Below are positions 4,276 to 34,584 of a stretch of DNA of 64,000 nucleotides, piece by piece (the stretch's first letter is position 1; each line of letters begins with the position of its first letter). A model generated the notes under the pieces. That model made no database searches, was not told where the DNA came from, and was given only the letters and a program-made list of their open reading frames with translations. The DNA comes from Cylindrospermum stagnale PCC 7417 (GTDB lineage: Bacteria > Cyanobacteriota > Cyanobacteriia > Cyanobacteriales > Nostocaceae): the NCBI RefSeq assembly GCF_000317535.1, contig NC_019757.1:2868501-2932500 (forward strand), written 5' to 3'. A program made the translations under genes and the position numbers.

Positions 4276-4863
4276 CTATACTTCTGGTGGCGGCAAGATT
4301 ATGGGTAAAGTAGTACTAGTGAGGTAGGCTCCACTAAAGTCGACTGCACTCAAATTGGCTCCACTCAAATTGGTTCTAATCAAATTGGTTCTACTCAAAT
4401 TGGCTCCACTCAAATCGGTTCTACTCATGTCAGTGTCCCGTATGTCGGCGTAACTAAGGTCGGCTTCACTGAGATTGGCCCCTATAAGTTTGGCCTCTAT
4501 AAGGATAGCGTAACTAAGGTCGACTCCACTAAGGTTGGCCTCTATAAGCCTGGTTTCCCATAGGGAAGCGTCACTAACATTGGCTTTACTAAGGTTGGCT
4601 TTACTAAGATTGGCTCTACTAAGGTCGGTTTCACTAAGGTTGGCTCTACTAAAGTCGGTTTCACTAAGATTGGCTCCTTCAAGGTTGGCTCTTAAAAGGT
4701 TGACTCCTTCGAGGTTAGCTCCTTCAAGGTTAGCTCCTTCAAGGTTAGCTCCTTCAAGGTCGCCTTTACTAAGGTCTACTTTAGTTTCATAATTTTTTAC
4801 TCGCCATTGATTCCAATTCTTTACCCCTTGCTTGAGCACAGATAGCTGCTCTTGATTAGCCAT
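4276..4863 (-). CDS. Pentapeptide-repeat protein
   Basis: A 195-residue protein. After an N-terminal helix of about 30 residues (MANQEQLSVLKQGVKNWNQW), almost the whole chain is pentapeptide repeats of the A(D/N)LxX kind, roughly 30 units such as LEGAN, LSETD, LSKAN and LSGAN. Such repeats form a right-handed quadrilateral beta-helix; in this family they occur in cytosolic or lumenal proteins with mostly unknown roles, some of them DNA mimics. There is no signal peptide and no fused domain. The DNA repeats are nearly identical in places (15-base GGAGCTAACCTTGAA-type units), suggesting recent expansion. The gene stands alone; a specific role cannot be read from the sequence. Confidence 0.88.
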   Translation of the reverse strand: MANQEQLSVLKQGVKNWNQWRVKNYETKVDLSKGDLEGANLEGANLEGANLEGVNLLRANLEGANLSETDFSRANLSETDLSRANLSKANLSKANVSDASLWETRLIEANLSGVDLSYAILIEAKLIGANLSEADLSYADIRDTDMSRTDLSGANLSRTNLIRTNLSGANLSAVDFSGAYLTSTTLPIILPPPEV

Positions 4864-6471: not shown

Positions 6472-6645
6472 GGTTTTTTGATGCGTTAGGGAACGCATCC
6501 TACCTGTGTGTGTTTAGTCTCTAGAAGTTTCTTTAATCATTGCCTGATAGCGACCTAGGTTTTTTGATGCGTTAGGGAACGCATCCTACTTGTGTGTGTT
6601 TAGTCTCTAGAAGTTTCTTTAATCATTGCCTGATAGCGACCTAGG
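6472..6645. repeat. 86-bp tandem duplication covering the 3' end of shc
   Basis: Two head-to-tail units, 6472-6557 and 6558-6643, differ at one base (TACCTGTG versus TACTTGTG), and identity continues to 6645. Each unit holds the palindromic GATGCGTTAGGGAACGCATC plus the last about 44 bases of the cyclase reading frame with its stop. The copy at 6472-6557 is therefore a detached duplicate of the gene's 3' end. Confidence 0.88.
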
Positions 6646-14458: not shown

Positions 14459-15064
14459 TTAGTCAGTAATGGCATTGAGTAGCACTTCTGATAAACTCAT
14501 ATCTTCCATATCATCCATTGTCACAGTGTCACAGATATCAAATTTTGCACCAGCGCCTTGGAGTTCATCATCCAAAACTTTCAGAAAGCGGGTAGCTTGG
14601 GCATCTGTGCCAACTTGAATAAAAGAAATAGCTAATTCTTCATCGCGATCCATTCGGCGAGAAGCTTCAATAATTACCTTCATCACCGCTTTGCGATCAT
14701 CTGGTTCCCCATCAGTCACAACTAAAATTGTCTCGCCATTCGCTTTAGTTTTATTAGCTGCTTTGCGTTGAAAGTAATCATCAGTAGCGTGTTTCAACAC
14801 ACCAGCTAAATCAGTAGTACCAGAGGGATCATTTTCTTGAAAAATTTGTGATACCTTGCTGGTTGTGACATTTTCATAGCGCTTGAATCTACCAGAAAAT
14901 ACATAAATGGTGATGCCATCTGGGTCAAATTGCTCGCACTTATTAGCTAAAGCTAAGGTAGATTCCTGTGCGGCTAGCCATCTGCTTCTACCACCTTTTT
15001 GATCTGGGGTAGCCATGCTGCCACTTTTATCGATAATTAATGTATAATCCCGGTTTTCCAACAC
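14459..15064 (-). CDS. VWA domain protein (second paralogue)
   Basis: A 201-residue stand-alone von Willebrand factor A domain. The MIDAS metal site DKSGSM (DxSxS) is at 12-17, with a downstream Thr in DPSGTTDLAGVL and an Asp in VVTDGEPDD. Such short VWA proteins (TerY-like) bind partners through a divalent metal. It is closely similar to the next upstream gene throughout, so the pair arose by tandem duplication. The 56-bp gap and shared strand suggest one transcript. The absence of membrane or signal segments points to the cytosol. Partners are not evident apart from the small downstream gene. Confidence 0.85.
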   Translation of the reverse strand: MLENRDYTLIIDKSGSMATPDQKGGRSRWLAAQESTLALANKCEQFDPDGITIYVFSGRFKRYENVTTSKVSQIFQENDPSGTTDLAGVLKHATDDYFQRKAANKTKANGETILVVTDGEPDDRKAVMKVIIEASRRMDRDEELAISFIQVGTDAQATRFLKVLDDELQGAGAKFDICDTVTMDDMEDMSLSEVLLNAITD

Positions 15065-15120
15065 TTTTCCCTCACCAGTTATCAGTTATTTATGATTCCG
15101 GACTTTAGACTATTGATAAA

Positions 15121-15726
15121 TTAGTCGGTTATCGCATTCATTAAAACATCTGCAAGGCTCATGTCTTCTAAATCATCTAAAGTGATGGTGTCGCAAATAT
15201 CAAATTTAGCGCCTACACCTTGTAATTGATCGTCCAAAGCTTTGAGAAACTTAGTTGCTTGAGCGTCAGAACCTACTTGAATGATCGAAATTGCTAATTC
15301 TTCATCCCGTTCCATTTGACGAGTTGCTTGAATGATTACCTCAAAGACCGCTTTGCGATCGTCTGGTTCGCCATCGGTGATGACTAATATTGTCTCACCA
15401 TTGGGCTTAGTTTGACCGCTGGCTTTGCGCTGAAAGAAATTGTTGACGGCATCCTGAAGTACACCTGCTAAGTTTGTCGTTCCAGCGGGGTCGTTTTCTT
15501 GAAATATCTGCGCGACTTTGGCTGTGGTGACGTTTTCGTAGCGTTTAAATCTCCCGGAAAACAGGTAAACGGTGATCCCGTCAGGGTCAAACTGTTCGCA
15601 TTTTCTGGCTAAGGCGATTGTAGACTCTTGGGCTATCTCCCATCTACTTCTACCGCCCGCTTGGTCGGGGGTAGACATACTGCCGCTTTTGTCAATAATT
15701 AAAGTATAGTCGCGATCGCTCATCAT
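15121..15726 (-). CDS. VWA domain protein (first paralogue)
   Basis: A 201-residue von Willebrand A-domain protein with an intact MIDAS (DKSGSM; DPAGTTNLAGVL; VITDGEPDD), nearly the same as its downstream neighbour. Differences cluster in surface stretches, e.g. GKTKANGE versus GQTKPNGE. It is the first gene of a probable three-gene operon reading leftward; the 222-bp gap upstream is shared with the divergent NACHT-like gene. No catalytic domain is attached, so an adaptor or metal-dependent binding role is inferred. Confidence 0.85.
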   Translation of the reverse strand: MMSDRDYTLIIDKSGSMSTPDQAGGRSRWEIAQESTIALARKCEQFDPDGITVYLFSGRFKRYENVTTAKVAQIFQENDPAGTTNLAGVLQDAVNNFFQRKASGQTKPNGETILVITDGEPDDRKAVFEVIIQATRQMERDEELAISIIQVGSDAQATKFLKALDDQLQGVGAKFDICDTITLDDLEDMSLADVLMNAITD

Positions 15727-15948
15727 AATATCCCTGTGATTACATCCCTGTGGTTCTAGTTTAGTTCAAGAATAGCTCCCTAGCATCTTGCTCTAGACGG
15801 TTTCCCACCCCTAGGACGTTTTTCTTCTCGCTATAAGTTACTCTACATATTTATAACATTTATAACTAAGAGAAACTACCGAAAAAACCCGTAACTATGG
15901 GCTAAAGTACAGATAAGGTATTAAATTATTGCTCTCACAACAGCAAAG

Positions 15949-17505
15949 ATGAATATTGACTTCGTTATAAACACAATTAAAGCTGCTGGCCCTCTAAGTT
16001 TTAGACAAGCGCAGAAAAGCGAAATTTTCATTAAAGTTTTACAAAACTTAAAACTTGACCAATCACAACCACCAAAAGATTTTGAGGGGGTTTATGCTTA
16101 TGCTTTAGTAAAGTATGGCGTACCTAAATCTGATAATTTACTAGATTTTTTTAGACAAAAAGAGATTAAACAGGCTTTTTGGAAAGCGTTTCAGGAAAAT
16201 CCCACAAATTTTATTGAGGATGCAGAATATTTTCTCGACTGGAATATCTTAGGGGATGAGATTAGAGCAGAGAAAATCAATATTCGTCAGGAATTTAAAG
16301 AATTTTATCATATTTTTCTGGGCGTAACGAGGCGCACGAGAAACCCAGCAGAAATTTTACTTGATCCCAATTTCCGGGAAATGGGGGAAGAGTTACCCTA
16401 CCCAGATAAGTTTAAGTCACTGATTGAAGAAAAAATTAGGGCGTTTCGTGGTCGTAAATTCGTGTTTGCTGAGTTTGATAATTTCCTCAAAAACCAGCGA
16501 AAGGGCTATTTTACGGTGATTGGGGATGCGGGGATGGGAAAAAGTGCGATCGCTGCTAAATACGTTTATGACCATCAAGCGATATGTTATTTCAATGTTA
16601 TCGCTGAAGGTAGCAATCGACCAGAGCAATTTCTAGAAAGTATTCGTAAACAACTAATTGAACGTTATCGATTGACAGATGCAGACAACGCCGATTTACC
16701 AACATTGTTGAATAAAATCAGTGAAAACTTTACCGCTAATGAACGGCTAATAATTGTCGTTGATGCTCTCGATGAAGTGGAACAAGAACCAGGAGCAGAG
16801 AATATTTTATATTTGCCTAAAACTCTGCCAAATAGAATTTATTTTTTGCTCACTAGACGACCTTATGCACCGAATAAAAAACGCCTGTTTACTGAAGGAT
16901 TGAAGCAGCAAGAGTTAGATTTGACAGCAGGTGAATATGCAGAGTTTAACCGCGCCGATGTGAAAGAGTATATTCGGTTATTTGTCAATGAAGATTCAGA
17001 ATATAAAGACGCTTTAAGCAAATGGATTAAAGACCGCAATATCTCATCTGAAGAATTTATTGAGCAGGTGTCTGTTAAGAGCGACAATAATTTCATGTAC
17101 CTGCGCTATGTCTTACCAGGTATTGCTCAAGGTTTGTATAATGACCTATCTTTGCAGCAGTTACCAGAAGGTTTACAAGAATATTATCAAATTCATTGGG
17201 AACGGATGGGTATGGAGAATGAACCCAATAGATTAAAGGTAATTGTGTTGTTTATTTTGGTGGAGATTGGTACAGCTATTACCTGTGAAATTATCGCGGC
17301 GATTTCTCAGCAGGATGAATGTGATGTTGAAAAGATTTTAGATACTTGGCGGGAATATTTGAAGAAGCGGGAAATCCAGGGAGAAATTTGTTATAGCATT
17401 TATCATGCAAGTTTTCTGGACTTCTTAAAAGGTAAGCGGGAATTGAAATCGAGCAGGAAGATTTTTGATGAGGTGAATCAACAAATTGCTAATTATTTAT
17501 ATTAA
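15949..17505 (+). CDS. NACHT-like STAND ATPase with uncharacterised N-terminal helical domain
   Basis: A 518-residue protein. Residues 1-150 form a helical domain (INTIKAAGPLSFRQAQKSE...GVYAYALVKYG...FRQKEIKQAFWKAF) that resembles an N-terminal module I associate with Nostoc STAND proteins; it could be an effector or adaptor. Residues 165-400 are the NTPase: GRKFVFAEFDNFL, P-loop VIGDAGMGKSAIAAKY, Walker B LIIVVDALDEVE and sensor ILLTRRPY-like FLLTRRPY. A winged-helix-like section ends with YHASFLDFLKG. There is no sensor repeat domain; the WD40 repeats are on the next gene, 193 bp on. This fits a signal-transducing conflict or programmed-death ATPase split from its sensor. Confidence 0.82.
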   Translation: MNIDFVINTIKAAGPLSFRQAQKSEIFIKVLQNLKLDQSQPPKDFEGVYAYALVKYGVPKSDNLLDFFRQKEIKQAFWKAFQENPTNFIEDAEYFLDWNILGDEIRAEKINIRQEFKEFYHIFLGVTRRTRNPAEILLDPNFREMGEELPYPDKFKSLIEEKIRAFRGRKFVFAEFDNFLKNQRKGYFTVIGDAGMGKSAIAAKYVYDHQAICYFNVIAEGSNRPEQFLESIRKQLIERYRLTDADNADLPTLLNKISENFTANERLIIVVDALDEVEQEPGAENILYLPKTLPNRIYFLLTRRPYAPNKKRLFTEGLKQQELDLTAGEYAEFNRADVKEYIRLFVNEDSEYKDALSKWIKDRNISSEEFIEQVSVKSDNNFMYLRYVLPGIAQGLYNDLSLQQLPEGLQEYYQIHWERMGMENEPNRLKVIVLFILVEIGTAITCEIIAAISQQDECDVEKILDTWREYLKKREIQGEICYSIYHASFLDFLKGKRELKSSRKIFDEVNQQIANYLY

Positions 17506-17570
17506 TTAACTCGGAGATACCCAAGCTACCGTGTACACACAAGTTATCCGATTAACCAAAAGTCTTGAAA

Positions 17571-17651
17571 AACCTCACCCTGTCCTGACGGACATCCCTC
17601 TCCTTGCGAAGGAGAGGGACAGGTTGTGCGTAGCAGAACCAGGGTGAGGTT
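17571..17651. repeat. Palindromic element between the NACHT and WD40 genes
   Basis: The outer arms AACCTCACCCTG (17571-17582) and CAGGGTGAGGTT (17640-17651) are perfect inverted repeats. Inside, CCCTCTCCTT/AAGGAGAGGG (17596-17618) form a second hairpin. This type of 80-bp palindrome is a dispersed cyanobacterial repeat; here it occupies the gap between two genes that are usually fused. Confidence 0.75.
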
Positions 17652-17698
17652 CCTCTCGTTCCTAGGCTCTGCCTAAGTACTTACAAATCTATCAATAA

Positions 17699-19822
17699 AT
17701 GAGAAATATTAACGAGAAATCACTAACAGAAAGTCCTGCATTTCAACGCGCTCGACTGAAGAGTTTACCCTATAGCTTGGTGCAGTCGGGGCAATTGCCA
17801 AGGTATTATCAAACGCTGACAGATTTTGACTTTTTGGCTAACAAAATTAATCATCCTGAGTTTGGGGTGCAGTCGCTGATTGAAGATTATGATTTGATAG
17901 AGCAGCCAGAAATATTAAATCACCCAGAATATCAGCCGGAGAAGGTGAAAGCGCTAAAGTTGATTCAAGGAGCGTTGGGACTGTCAGCGCAGATTTTGAG
18001 AGAGGACCAAACCCAATTAGTAGCGCAATTATTAGGACGAATGCTGTGTTTTGAATTGCCAGAAATTCAAGCAATGTTGGAGCAAGCAAAACAGCGGCAA
18101 ATTTCACCTTGGTTGCGTCCCTTAACATCAAGCTTAACCCCCCCTGGTGGCAGATTATTACGCACCCTCAGCGGTCATCGTCACTCGGTAAATGCAGTCG
18201 CTATCACCCCCGATGGCCAGCAGGTGATTTCTGGTTCTTGTGACGAGACAATCAAAGTCTGGAGTTTAGCCACAGGGTCAGAATTGCAGACTTTTACTGG
18301 TCATCGTCACTCGGTAAATGCAGTCACTATCACCCCCGATGGCCAGCAGGTGATTTCTGGTTCTTATGACGACACAATCAAAGTCTGGAGTTTAGCCACA
18401 GGGGAAGAATTGCGGACTTTTACTGGTCATAGTCACTCGGTAAATGCGATCGCTATCACCCCCGATGGACAGCAGGTGATTTCTGGTTCTTGTGACGAGA
18501 CAATCAAAGTCTGGAGTTTAGCCACAGGGTCGGAATTGCGGACTTTTACTGGTAATAGTGACTCGGTAACAGCGATCGCTATCACCCCCGATGGCCAGCA
18601 GGTGATTTCTGGTTCTTATTACGGAACAATCAAAGTCTGGTGTTTAGCCACAGGGTCAGAATTGCGGACTTTTACTGGTCATAGTTCCTATGTAAATGCA
18701 GTCGCTATTGTAAATGCAGTCGCTATCACCCCCGATGGCCAGCAGGTGATTTCTGGTTCATCGGACAACACAATCAAAGTCTGGAGTTTAGCCACAGGGT
18801 CAGAATTGCGGACTTTTACTGGTCATCGTTACGGGGTAACAGCAGTCGCTATCACCCCCGATGGCCAGCAGGTGATTTCTGGTTCATCGGACAACACAAT
18901 CAAAGTCTGGAGTTTAGCCACAGGGTCAGAATTGCGGACTTTTACTGGTAATAGTGACTCGGTAACAGCGATCGCTATCACCCCCGATGGCCAGCAGATG
19001 ATTTCTGGTTCAGAGGACGAGACAATCAAAGTCTGGAGTTTAGCCACAGGGTCAGAATTGCGGACTTTTACTGGTCATAGTGACTCGGTATATGCAGTCG
19101 CTATCACCCCCGATGGCCAGCAGGTGATTTCTGGTTCTTATGACAAGACAATCAAAGTCTGGAGTTTAGCCACAGGGTCAGAATTGCTGACTTTTACTGG
19201 TCATCGTTCCTGGGTAAATGCGATCGCTATCACCCCCGATGGCCAGCAGGTGATTTCTGGTTCAGAGGACAAGACAATCAAAGTCTGGAGTTTAGCCACA
19301 GGGTCAGAATTGCTGACTTTTACTGGTCATCGTTCCTGGGTAAATGCGATCGCTATCACCCCCGATGGCCAGCAGGTGATTTCTGGTTCAGAGGACAAGA
19401 CAATCAAAGTCTGGAGTTTAGCAATAGGGTTAGAATTGCGGACTTTTACTGGTCATAGCTTCGGGGTAACAGCAGTCGCTATCACCCCCGATGGCCAGCA
19501 GGTGATTTCTGGTTCAGGGGACAACACAATCAAAGTCTGGTGTTTAGCAACGGGGGAAGAATTGCGGACTTTTACTGGTGATAGTTACGGGGTAAAAGCA
19601 GTCGCTATCACCCCCGATGGCCAGCAGGTGATTTCTGGTTCATGGGACACCACAATCAAAGTCTGGTGTTTAGCAACGGGGGAAGTAATTACCACTTTTA
19701 TCGGGGAAAGTTCCTTACTTTGCTGCGCTGTTGCACCGGATGGGGTGACAATTGTAGCGGGGGATGAATCAGGAAGATTGCATTCTTTGCGGTGGGAAGG
19801 TGGGGAAGGTTCAGAATTATGA
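17699..19822 (+). CDS. WD40-repeat sensor protein with near-identical hypervariable repeats
   Basis: A 707-residue protein. Residues 1-152 are a helical linker (SLPYSLVQSGQLPRYYQTL, then FDFLANKINHPEFGVQSLIEDYDL) of the kind that sits between NACHT and WD40 parts in fused proteins. From residue 154 there are twelve 42-residue WD40 repeats (about 18158-19687) plus a degenerate thirteenth; this is roughly enough for two seven-bladed propellers. The repeats are almost identical in protein and DNA, except at positions 8, 9, 10, 12, 28 and 30 of the unit. Repeat 5 has a six-residue duplication (VNAVAI twice). Repeats 9 and 10 are practically the same. The stop overlaps the next ATPase start (ATGA). 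Confidence 0.95.
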   Translation: MRNINEKSLTESPAFQRARLKSLPYSLVQSGQLPRYYQTLTDFDFLANKINHPEFGVQSLIEDYDLIEQPEILNHPEYQPEKVKALKLIQGALGLSAQILREDQTQLVAQLLGRMLCFELPEIQAMLEQAKQRQISPWLRPLTSSLTPPGGRLLRTLSGHRHSVNAVAITPDGQQVISGSCDETIKVWSLATGSELQTFTGHRHSVNAVTITPDGQQVISGSYDDTIKVWSLATGEELRTFTGHSHSVNAIAITPDGQQVISGSCDETIKVWSLATGSELRTFTGNSDSVTAIAITPDGQQVISGSYYGTIKVWCLATGSELRTFTGHSSYVNAVAIVNAVAITPDGQQVISGSSDNTIKVWSLATGSELRTFTGHRYGVTAVAITPDGQQVISGSSDNTIKVWSLATGSELRTFTGNSDSVTAIAITPDGQQMISGSEDETIKVWSLATGSELRTFTGHSDSVYAVAITPDGQQVISGSYDKTIKVWSLATGSELLTFTGHRSWVNAIAITPDGQQVISGSEDKTIKVWSLATGSELLTFTGHRSWVNAIAITPDGQQVISGSEDKTIKVWSLAIGLELRTFTGHSFGVTAVAITPDGQQVISGSGDNTIKVWCLATGEELRTFTGDSYGVKAVAITPDGQQVISGSWDTTIKVWCLATGEVITTFIGESSLLCCAVAPDGVTIVAGDESGRLHSLRWEGGEGSEL

Positions 19823-20277
19823 ATAATTCGCCGTCTATCGCTAACAATAACGGCAGATATCCGCTAGAGTTTCAGCAAGTCTTGCAAGCACACAACCTCA
19901 ATTTTGTTGGTCGTGGGTTCGTGTTTACTGCGATTTCTAACTTTCTTCAGCGCTATGACCGGGGTTACTTTACGATTGTGGGTACTCCCGGCAGCGGTAA
20001 AAGTGCTATCCTCGCTAATTATGCGATCGCCTCCGGTGGGCGGTACGCGATCGCTAATCCCCAAGTTGTCTATTACAATGCTCAAGTTGCTGGCAAAAAT
20101 CGCGCTGATGTTTTTCTGGCTTCTCTCTGCACCCAATTTACTCAACCGTTGGCGGAAATATCTCTGCAATCTCTTCTCCAGCAAGTCAGCAATCAGCTAC
20201 AACCGCAGCAAAGGTTGATTATTGCTATTGATGCGGTGGATGCAATTGACCGAAGTTTCCAATCTCCTAGCGGTTAG
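19819..20277 (+). pseudogene. Truncated NACHT-like ATPase
   Basis: A 152-residue frame beginning at ATG 19819, which overlaps the WD40 stop by four bases (ATGA), implying translational coupling. It contains the entry region LNFVGRGFVFTAISNFLQRY, P-loop TIVGTPGSGKSAILANYA and Walker B LIIAIDAVDAID, then ends at SFQSPSG, where related ATPases continue for another 150-plus residues. The break coincides with a palindromic repeat starting near 20263. It is therefore probably an N-terminal stub of a second STAND ATPase cut by element insertion; a short expressed fragment is possible. It is homologous to the ATPase part of the gene at 15949. Confidence 0.72.
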
Positions 20278-20354
20278 AAACCGCGTCTACACAGGCAAAA
20301 CCCACCGACCTGGGTTTAAAACAGTAGTAGAGACGTTGCATGCAACGTCTCTAC
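20263..20354. repeat. Palindromic repeat cluster ending the truncated ATPase
   Basis: Three hairpins in a row: GCGGTT-AGA-AACCGC at about 20270-20284, AAACCCA-type arms (ACCCACCGACCTGGGT) near 20299-20314, and a perfect 28-base palindrome at 20327-20354 with half-site GTAGAGACGTTGCA. These are dispersed repeat units of Nostocales genomes. Confidence 0.75.
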
Positions 20355-20383
20355 ATTGATTTACAGAATTTTTTATTGGGTGA

Positions 20384-34332: not shown

Positions 34333-34584
34333 CTTAGGACTTACTTCCTTTGGAAATTCATCCTGTAGGGTGCGTTCCCTAACGCACGGATTAAGATTTT
34401 CAATTTACCTGTAGGGTGTGTTCCCTAACGCACGGATTAAAATTTTCAATTTACCTGTAGGGTGCGTTCCCTAACGCACGGATTAAGATTTTCAATTTAC
34501 CTGTAGGGTGCGTTCCCTAACGCACGGATTAAAATTTTCAATTTACCTACATATTTAGCATTGTTTGTCAATGCGTAAGTCCTG
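34333..34584. repeat. Element with AGGACTTAC ends and a 4 x 46-bp tandem array
   Basis: The flanks TTAGGACTTAC (about 34334) and GTAAGTCCTGAA (about 34575) are inverted. Between them, 34362-34545, are four contiguous 46-base units, each with the palindrome GTGCGTTCCCTAACGCAC followed by GATTAA(G/A)ATTTTCAATTTA. Units 1 and 3 share one variant base and units 2 and 4 the other (AAG versus AAA), suggesting duplication of a two-unit block. No coding frame is present. This is not a CRISPR: there are no spacers. Confidence 0.85.

What the first reader, a model, noticed from the sequence alone, without database searches (positions are those of the whole stretch)
18158..19687. WD40 repeats vary only at the six positions that vary in fungal HET allorecognition repeats
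Seen: twelve 42-residue repeats are nearly identical in protein and DNA, but positions 8, 9, 10, 12, 28 and 30 differ: GH(RHS/SHS/SDS/SSY/RYG/RSW/SFG/SYG)V(N/T/Y/K) and GS(C/Y/S/E/G/W)D(E/D/N/K/T/G). Known: in Podospora HET-D/E/R NACHT-WD40 proteins, positions 10, 11, 12, 14, 30 and 32 of the 42-residue repeat (the same sites, offset by two) are under diversifying selection on the binding face. Inference: a bacterial self/non-self or phage-recognition sensor evolving by repeat shuffling.
Basis: partly seen in the sequence, partly recalled or inferred. Interest (0 to 1): 0.88.

Follow-up and report, generated by a model that had tools for sequence, protein, structure and literature searches.

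The report
Fast-changing sensor of bacterial split NLR
In a filamentous cyanobacterium, the sensor gene of an immune-receptor-like three-gene operon is built from near-identical propeller repeats that change mainly at the same binding-face positions used by fungal self/non-self receptors, and in relatives whole sensor arrays differ while the neighbouring genes stay similar; what it recognises is unknown.

Summary
The repeats are real and the coordinates exact: twelve WD40 repeats (one with an 18-bp in-frame insert) plus a degenerate thirteenth. The six named positions are among the most variable, though 2, 7, 14, 36 and 41 vary too. Amino-acid change at the six sites is 3.5 times the synonymous rate (bootstrap 2.3-5.0), against below 0.7 elsewhere; all six map to one propeller face. 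The excess holds in 47 of 56 homogenised arrays of the family and includes all four fungal codons under strong selection; the seventh fungal site is not variable here. The gene is not a fused NACHT-WD40 protein but the middle gene of a conserved operon in filamentous cyanobacteria: A (NNH5-NACHT), B (APAF-1-like helical domain plus WD40), C (second NACHT). A+B looks like an APAF-1-type receptor split in two. At one site in four Nostoc genomes A and C stay 83-94% identical while the WD40 array falls to 33-40% in five of six comparisons. Two other ortholog pairs keep repeat order with no excess. Gene C is truncated here. Function is untested. Repetitive WD40s with variable hotspots and repetitive STAND propellers in Nostoc are published, so this is a new variant of a known kind.

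The parts
15949..17505 (+). Gene A, 518 aa: NNH5 (NACHT N-terminal helical domain 5) followed by a NACHT/STAND NTPase half; no WD40
   Evidence: Pfam NNH5 E=4.4e-44 and NACHT E=5.3e-8; NTPase motifs invariant in 34 homologues; model matches Apaf-1, CED-4 and plant resistosomes
17522..17651 (.). About 130-bp repetitive element (MITE-like) sitting between A and B, where many relatives have 0-2 nt
   Evidence: many copies in a congener, up to 97% identical; A-B junctions in relatives
17699..19822 (+). Gene B, 707 aa: sensor protein made of a helical domain plus WD40 propellers
17699..18157 (+). Helical domain of B, related to the APAF-1 helical domain (PF17908)
   Evidence: weak in the window itself (E=0.018) but reaches Pfam's cut-off in family members L062 and L138; all-helical in the model, residues 13-132
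18158..19687 (+). Twelve near-identical 42-residue WD40 repeats; hypervariable positions 8, 9, 10 (d-a loop), 12 (start of strand a), 28 and 30 (b-c loop)
18691..18726 (+). 18-bp in-frame tandem duplication inside repeat 5 (VNAVAI twice)
   Evidence: TRF; sequence; low model confidence at residues 327-343
19688..19819 (+). Degenerate 13th WD40 repeat, conserved at the C-terminus of B in the family
   Evidence: conserved C-terminal residues in alignment A1
19819..20277 (+). Gene C, truncated: N-terminal part of a second NACHT/AAA protein (likely start ATG 19819 overlapping the B stop as ATGA; full length about 330-440 aa in relatives)
   Evidence: no intact copy found in this genome

Best explanation
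Gene B is the sensor subunit of a split APAF-1-like NLR. A (NNH5-NACHT) supplies the signalling domain and the oligomerising NTPase; B supplies the helical domain plus WD40 propellers that in APAF-1 belong to the same chain; C is a second NACHT protein. B is expected to hold A inactive in trans and, on binding a ligand with the one face formed by its d-a and b-c loops, to let A oligomerise and trigger a defence or cell-death output. The array is kept homogeneous by repeat duplication and conversion and diversifies at face residues; in relatives large parts of B differ completely between conserved A and C. Shown: operon, domains, homogenisation, site-specific amino-acid excess, one-face location, array turnover. 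Inferred: A-B contact, autoinhibition, oligomerisation, ligand, output, and the role of C. In this genome C is truncated, so the system may be partly inactive or may work as A+B.
For: A-B-C order in 64 non-redundant loci, plus 8 with two B genes and one with three. In 25 loci examined the A stop and B start are 0-2 nt apart in 14 and overlap in 4; B and C are fused in L069. B model: best PDB matches 2YMU, then full-length Apaf-1 over the whole length; B N-terminus reaches the APAF1_C cut-off in relatives. A model: Apaf-1, CED-4, resistosomes. Window pN6/pS = 3.48 (bootstrap 2.33-5.02), pN36/pS 0.23-0.62. In arrays with identity at least 0.75, pN6 exceeds pS36 in 33 of 39 (Wilcoxon p=2.5e-7), and in 14 of 17 at 0.70-0.75 (p=0.009). 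524 different six-site signatures among 608 repeats. Same-site comparisons: WD40 identity lower than C (p=0.002) and A (p=0.03) over 9 site clusters; array turnover at Nostoc site S1. The same chromosomal slot in a congener holds a TIR-methyltransferase gene and an 8xMP gene instead.
Against: No interaction, expression or phenotype data. Gene C is truncated in the window and broken in the other operon of this genome, which also lacks gene A, and an element separates A from B here. Ortholog pairs L131/L132 and L133b/L145 keep repeat order with pN6 below pS. Arrays of lower internal identity show no excess. Some relatives are short-read-style assemblies, which can collapse such arrays (PMC12222747). 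Counting tests on repeats that exchange sequence are approximate.
Confidence: 0.62

Rival explanations
1. Kin or allorecognition version of the split receptor: B senses a polymorphic self protein of neighbouring filaments, as HET-D/HET-E sense HET-C.
For: Same selected face positions as HET-D/E; A and C at the Nostoc site are conserved while B differs between species; the named hosts among the best 80 matches are filamentous genera (habit from general knowledge).
Against: No polymorphic self partner known; cyanobacterial filaments do not fuse cytoplasm as hyphae do; within-species allele data not available here.
Confidence: 0.15
2. Phage or parasite sensing version of the split receptor: B binds a phage protein, as Avs and bacterial NACHT sensors do, and diversifies in an arms race.
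For: NACHT half weakly similar to Avs1b and a STAND_TPR model; the genomic slot is occupied by TIR-methyltransferase and 8xMP genes in a congener; N-terminal domains of A differ between loci, NNH5 versus HTH-like, typical of conflict systems.
Against: No phage ligand or protection data; known Avs sensors recognise conserved phage folds rather than using hypervariable sites (general knowledge).
Confidence: 0.45
3. Ordinary relaxed constraint: young WD40 repeats vary at surface hotspots because nothing selects against change; B is a generic scaffold.
For: Hu 2017 (PMC5587647) reports diversity at predicted hotspots in repetitive WD40s generally; paralogous repeats in proteins show relaxed or positive selection generally (PMC5120217, title and abstract); divergent arrays have pN6 about equal to pS.
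Against: Relaxation alone gives pN/pS near 1, not 3.5; codon 11 between the variable codons is invariant GTA in all twelve copies; conserved operon and array turnover between conserved genes.
Confidence: 0.2
4. Targeted hypermutation (DGR-like) generates the variable codons.
For: Codon 9 has the form NNC throughout in the window; DGRs diversify NACHT-linked sensors in other multicellular bacteria (PMC10907252).
Against: No template repeat elsewhere in the genome: DNA matches to a repeat lie in this gene, in the paralogous array, or are one 35-bp match at another WD40 locus. Third bases of codons 9 and 10 are nearly constant while first and second bases vary without A-specificity; synonymous diversity at codons 11 and 13 is below average.
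Confidence: 0.03
5. Decaying remnant: the operon is being lost here and the array is drifting.
For: Truncated C, inserted element between A and B, duplication in repeat 5.
Against: A and B are intact open frames; the 36 framework codons are under purifying selection (pN36/pS 0.23-0.62) and NTPase motifs are intact.
Confidence: 0.15

Closest known systems
Podospora anserina HNWD NLRs (HET-D, HET-E, HET-R)
   Same: near-identical 42-residue WD40 repeats; same face positions diversified (fungal codons equal to 10, 12, 28, 30 strongest); repeat number changes; NACHT-type NTPase
   Different: bacterial; sensor and NTPase on separate genes; NNH5 instead of the HET effector; a second NACHT gene; fungal position 39 not variable; no RIP; no incompatibility phenotype known
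WRAP / Npun_R6612 STAND operon of Nostoc (PDB 2YMU; Dunin-Horkawicz 2014, as described in PMC9218822 and PMC6805158)
   Same: filamentous cyanobacteria, recently amplified WD40 double propeller, operon with a second STAND protein, proposed innate immunity; closest PDB match to B
   Different: there the propeller is fused to a STAND ATPase and the partner carries TIR; the 14 blades are nearly identical, with no synonymous change reported; here B has no NTPase and differs at face sites
Highly repetitive WD40 proteins of prokaryotes (Hu 2017, PMC5587647)
   Same: high internal identity with diversity at predicted top-face hotspots; abundant in cyanobacteria
   Different: in the passages read: no operon context, no test against the synonymous rate, no orthologous-locus comparison
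APAF-1 / apoptosome
   Same: NTPase half, helical domain, two WD40 propellers
   Different: one chain, CARD, not hypervariable; here split into A and B and with gene C
Avs / bacterial NACHT antiphage proteins
   Same: STAND NTPase with N-terminal effector and C-terminal sensor logic
   Different: single polypeptide; only weak profile similarity; function not tested here

Membership tests
STAND/NACHT NLR-like system | NACHT/STAND P-loop NTPase | tested here: met
   Pfam NACHT over cut-off in gene A; invariant Walker regions; fold matches Apaf-1 and CED-4
STAND/NACHT NLR-like system | effector, NTPase and repeat sensor in one polypeptide | tested here: not met
   A and B are separate ORFs in the window and in the A-B(-C) loci found
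Fungal HNWD (HET-D/E/R) family | high internal conservation of WD40 repeats with number polymorphism | tested here: met
   mean identity 0.81; 19 versus 11 repeats at an orthologous locus, one side from a 110-contig assembly
Fungal HNWD (HET-D/E/R) family | diversifying selection at face codons equal to 10, 12, 28, 30 | tested here: met
   pN at the four 0.496 against pS 0.129 in the window; top-ranked in the family
Fungal HNWD (HET-D/E/R) family | variability at fungal position 39 | tested here: not met
   corresponding position 37 has pooled pN/pS 0.11 and is invariant in the window
Fungal HNWD (HET-D/E/R) family | HET-type N-terminal effector on the same chain | tested here: not met
   N-terminus of A is NNH5
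Fungal HNWD (HET-D/E/R) family | incompatibility or cell death on recognition of a polymorphic partner | not testable with these tools
   needs experiment
APAF-1-like (helical domain plus WD40) | APAF-1 helical domain next to WD40 propellers | tested here: met
   APAF1_C reaches cut-off in family members L062 and L138, weak in the window copy; full-length structural match
DGR-diversified sensor | template repeat elsewhere in the genome | tested here: not met
   no template copy of the repeat unit found
WRAP STAND operon | propeller fused to STAND ATPase, partner with TIR | tested here: not met
   B lacks an NTPase, A carries NNH5
Avs antiphage family | over-threshold match to an Avs model | tested here: not met
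   NF041810 19 bits against cut-off 1500; PADLOC Avs1b only partial

The most novel reading that the evidence does not exclude
A split NLR whose sensor is a separate, exchangeable gene: A and C form a conserved frame and B is a hypervariable slot renewed by repeat homogenisation, face-site selection and large-scale array replacement, making it a bacterial recognition locus convergent with fungal het genes at the level of individual residues.
Probability: 0.4. Interest if true: 0.85.

Novelty: new variant of a known kind. Interest (0 to 1): 0.66.

Why it matters
If right, bacteria and fungi independently use the same residues of the same repeat to diversify an immune-type sensor, and the bacterial version is split so that the sensor can be replaced without touching the NTPase. 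That gives a defined, two-gene, testable system for how recognition specificity in NLR-like proteins is generated, and a way to ask whether filamentous bacteria recognise phage or kin with it.

Tried and rejected
DGR origin: no template copy of the repeat in the genome. Programmed frameshift joining A and B: rejected as the default, because where A and B abut, A ends in a stop and B begins at its own ATG 0-2 nt later after an SD-like sequence. Window locus in congeners by synteny: the slot is syntenic, but A-B-C is absent and replaced by a TIR-methyltransferase and an 8xMP gene in G002, and the interval in G001 is partly masked. Array comparison with L135 discarded because its array is a run of N. 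First genome-contig scan with the B N-terminus found nothing; the NACHT alignment worked. Neighbouring vWA genes were considered as operon members and rejected: they are present at the site in species lacking A-B-C there. The large site cluster 0 may merge several sites and was not used as a single clean example. Strain-level dN/dS could not be done: the collections hold one genome per species.

Full report
What is there. The window lies in a 7.6-Mb cyanobacterial genome. A same-genus genome (G001) has a main replicon of exactly the length of Cylindrospermum sp. NIES-4074 AP018269.1, so the host is a Cylindrospermum-like filamentous cyanobacterium (inference). Gene B (17699-19822) encodes a 153-residue helical region, twelve 42-residue WD40 repeats (18158-19687) and a degenerate thirteenth. 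Repeat 5 carries an 18-bp in-frame duplication.

Is the pattern more than chance? At positions 8, 9, 10, 12, 28 and 30 mean pN is 0.449, at the other 36 it is 0.049, and pS over all codons is 0.129. The ratio at the six sites is 3.48, bootstrap interval over repeats 2.33-5.02; elsewhere it is 0.23-0.62. With pS at the six codons themselves (0.256, few sites) as denominator the ratio is about 1.8. No random six-position set out of 200,000 reached the observed mean. The word 'only' is too strong: position 41 is as variable as 12, and positions 2 and 14 are slightly above 8. Codon 11, in the middle of the variable block, is GTA in all twelve copies, which argues against a local mutation hotspot.

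Where the sites lie. In the AlphaFold2 model (mean pLDDT 83.6) each repeat has four strands. In the repeat at residues 496-537, for example, strands run 495-500, 506-511, 517-522 and 526-531: positions 8-10 form the d-a loop, 12 starts strand a, and 28 and 30 are in the b-c loop. These loops lie on one face of a propeller, the one on which Paoletti 2007 placed the fungal sites. The opposite-face a-b loop (TPDGQ) is invariant in this array. The face assignment rests on the strand order and the known WD40 topology; model coordinates were not inspected.

The real unit is an operon. Gene A upstream is NNH5 plus NACHT and has no WD40; gene C downstream starts with ATG overlapping the stop of B but is truncated at about 150 residues. 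Relatives show the same order: 64 non-redundant A-B-C loci, 8 with two B genes and one with three. In 25 junctions examined A stop and B start are 0-2 nt apart in 14 and overlap in 4. B and C are fused in one relative, L069. The named hosts among the best 80 hits are filamentous genera (habit from general knowledge). The N-terminus of B reaches Pfam's cut-off for the APAF-1 helical domain in two family members, L062 and L138; the B model matches 2YMU and then full-length Apaf-1, and the A model matches Apaf-1, CED-4 and plant resistosomes. A+B therefore looks like an APAF-1-type receptor cut in two.

The family shows the same regime. In 39 arrays with internal identity at least 0.75, pN at the six sites exceeds pS at the other sites in 33 (Wilcoxon p=2.5e-7); at 0.70-0.75 in 14 of 17 (p=0.009); below 0.70 the excess vanishes, as expected if synonymous change has caught up or selection differs. 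Pooled ranking is 28, 9, 10, 12, 30, then 5, 2, 1, with 8 at 0.70. So five of the six, including the four fungal codons under strong selection, stand out; position 8 does not, and fungal position 39 (37 here) has ratio 0.11. Among 608 repeats of homogenised arrays there are 524 different six-site signatures.

Orthologous loci. L050 (this genome) and L062 (a congener) share flanks 88-95% identical over most of their length, yet have 19 and 11 repeats, with no shared six-site signature and repeats mostly more alike within than between species. L062 is from a genome in 110 contigs, so its repeat count carries the assembly caveat. At Nostoc site S1 (L138, L147, L148, L151; flanks 89-97% identical) A is 83-94% and C 85-92% identical; L138/L148 have the same array (92%), while the other five comparisons have arrays 33-40% identical. 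At S4 (L152/L154) A is 96% and the array 45%. Across nine site clusters the array is less conserved than C (p=0.002) and A (p=0.03). Against this, L131/L132 and L133b/L145 keep repeat order and have pN6 below pS, and L138/L148 changed mainly in the first five repeats, pN6/pS36 about 1.5. The regime is therefore not uniform.

The chromosomal slot. In congener G002 the same neighbours (vWA genes on one side, M50-type peptidase on the other) flank a TIR-methyltransferase gene and an 8xMP gene instead of A-B-C. A slot that carries different conflict-type genes in close relatives fits a defence function but does not prove it.

State of this copy. A 130-bp repetitive element separates A and B, and C is truncated; no intact C was found in the genome. 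A and B themselves are intact and under constraint.

Compared with what is known. Repetitive WD40 proteins with diverse hotspots (Hu 2017), recently amplified STAND propellers in Nostoc with a proposed immune role, and DGR-diversified NACHT sensors are published. Searches of the open library found no report of a test against synonymous change in bacterial arrays, of the A-B-C split operon, or of sensor replacement between conserved A and C; that library lacks most subscription journals. Verdict: new variant of a known kind.

Noticed in passing
L098:6327-8902 (G002, syntenic to window 15770-20369): The slot that holds A-B-C in the window holds a TIR plus methyltransferase protein and an 8xMP membrane protein in a congener: a possible defence slot.
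   Followed up: partly
window 14459-15726: Two tandem vWA (TerF-like) genes on the minus strand; DNA matches in congener G002 suggest three copies there. They flank the slot.
   Followed up: partly
L055, L062, L066, L220 gene A: The N-terminal domain of gene A differs between loci (NNH5, or HTH-like), sometimes at the same genomic site, suggesting exchange of the output module.
   Followed up: partly
L141, L133, L059, L217, L235, L236: Two or three B genes in tandem between A and C.
   Followed up: no
L069:5888-8839 (oriented): B and C fused in one open reading frame.
   Followed up: no
window 4327-4760: 15-bp period tandem repeats, as expected for a pentapeptide-repeat gene.
   Followed up: no
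window 6472-6645 and 34362-34548: Tandem arrays of 86-bp and 46-bp units, both containing a motif built around 'AACGCA'/'TGCGTT' that looks like a small dispersed repeat.
   Followed up: no
G000:C2:6710186-6710485: A stray fragment similar to the C-terminal part of gene C, far from both operons.
   Followed up: no
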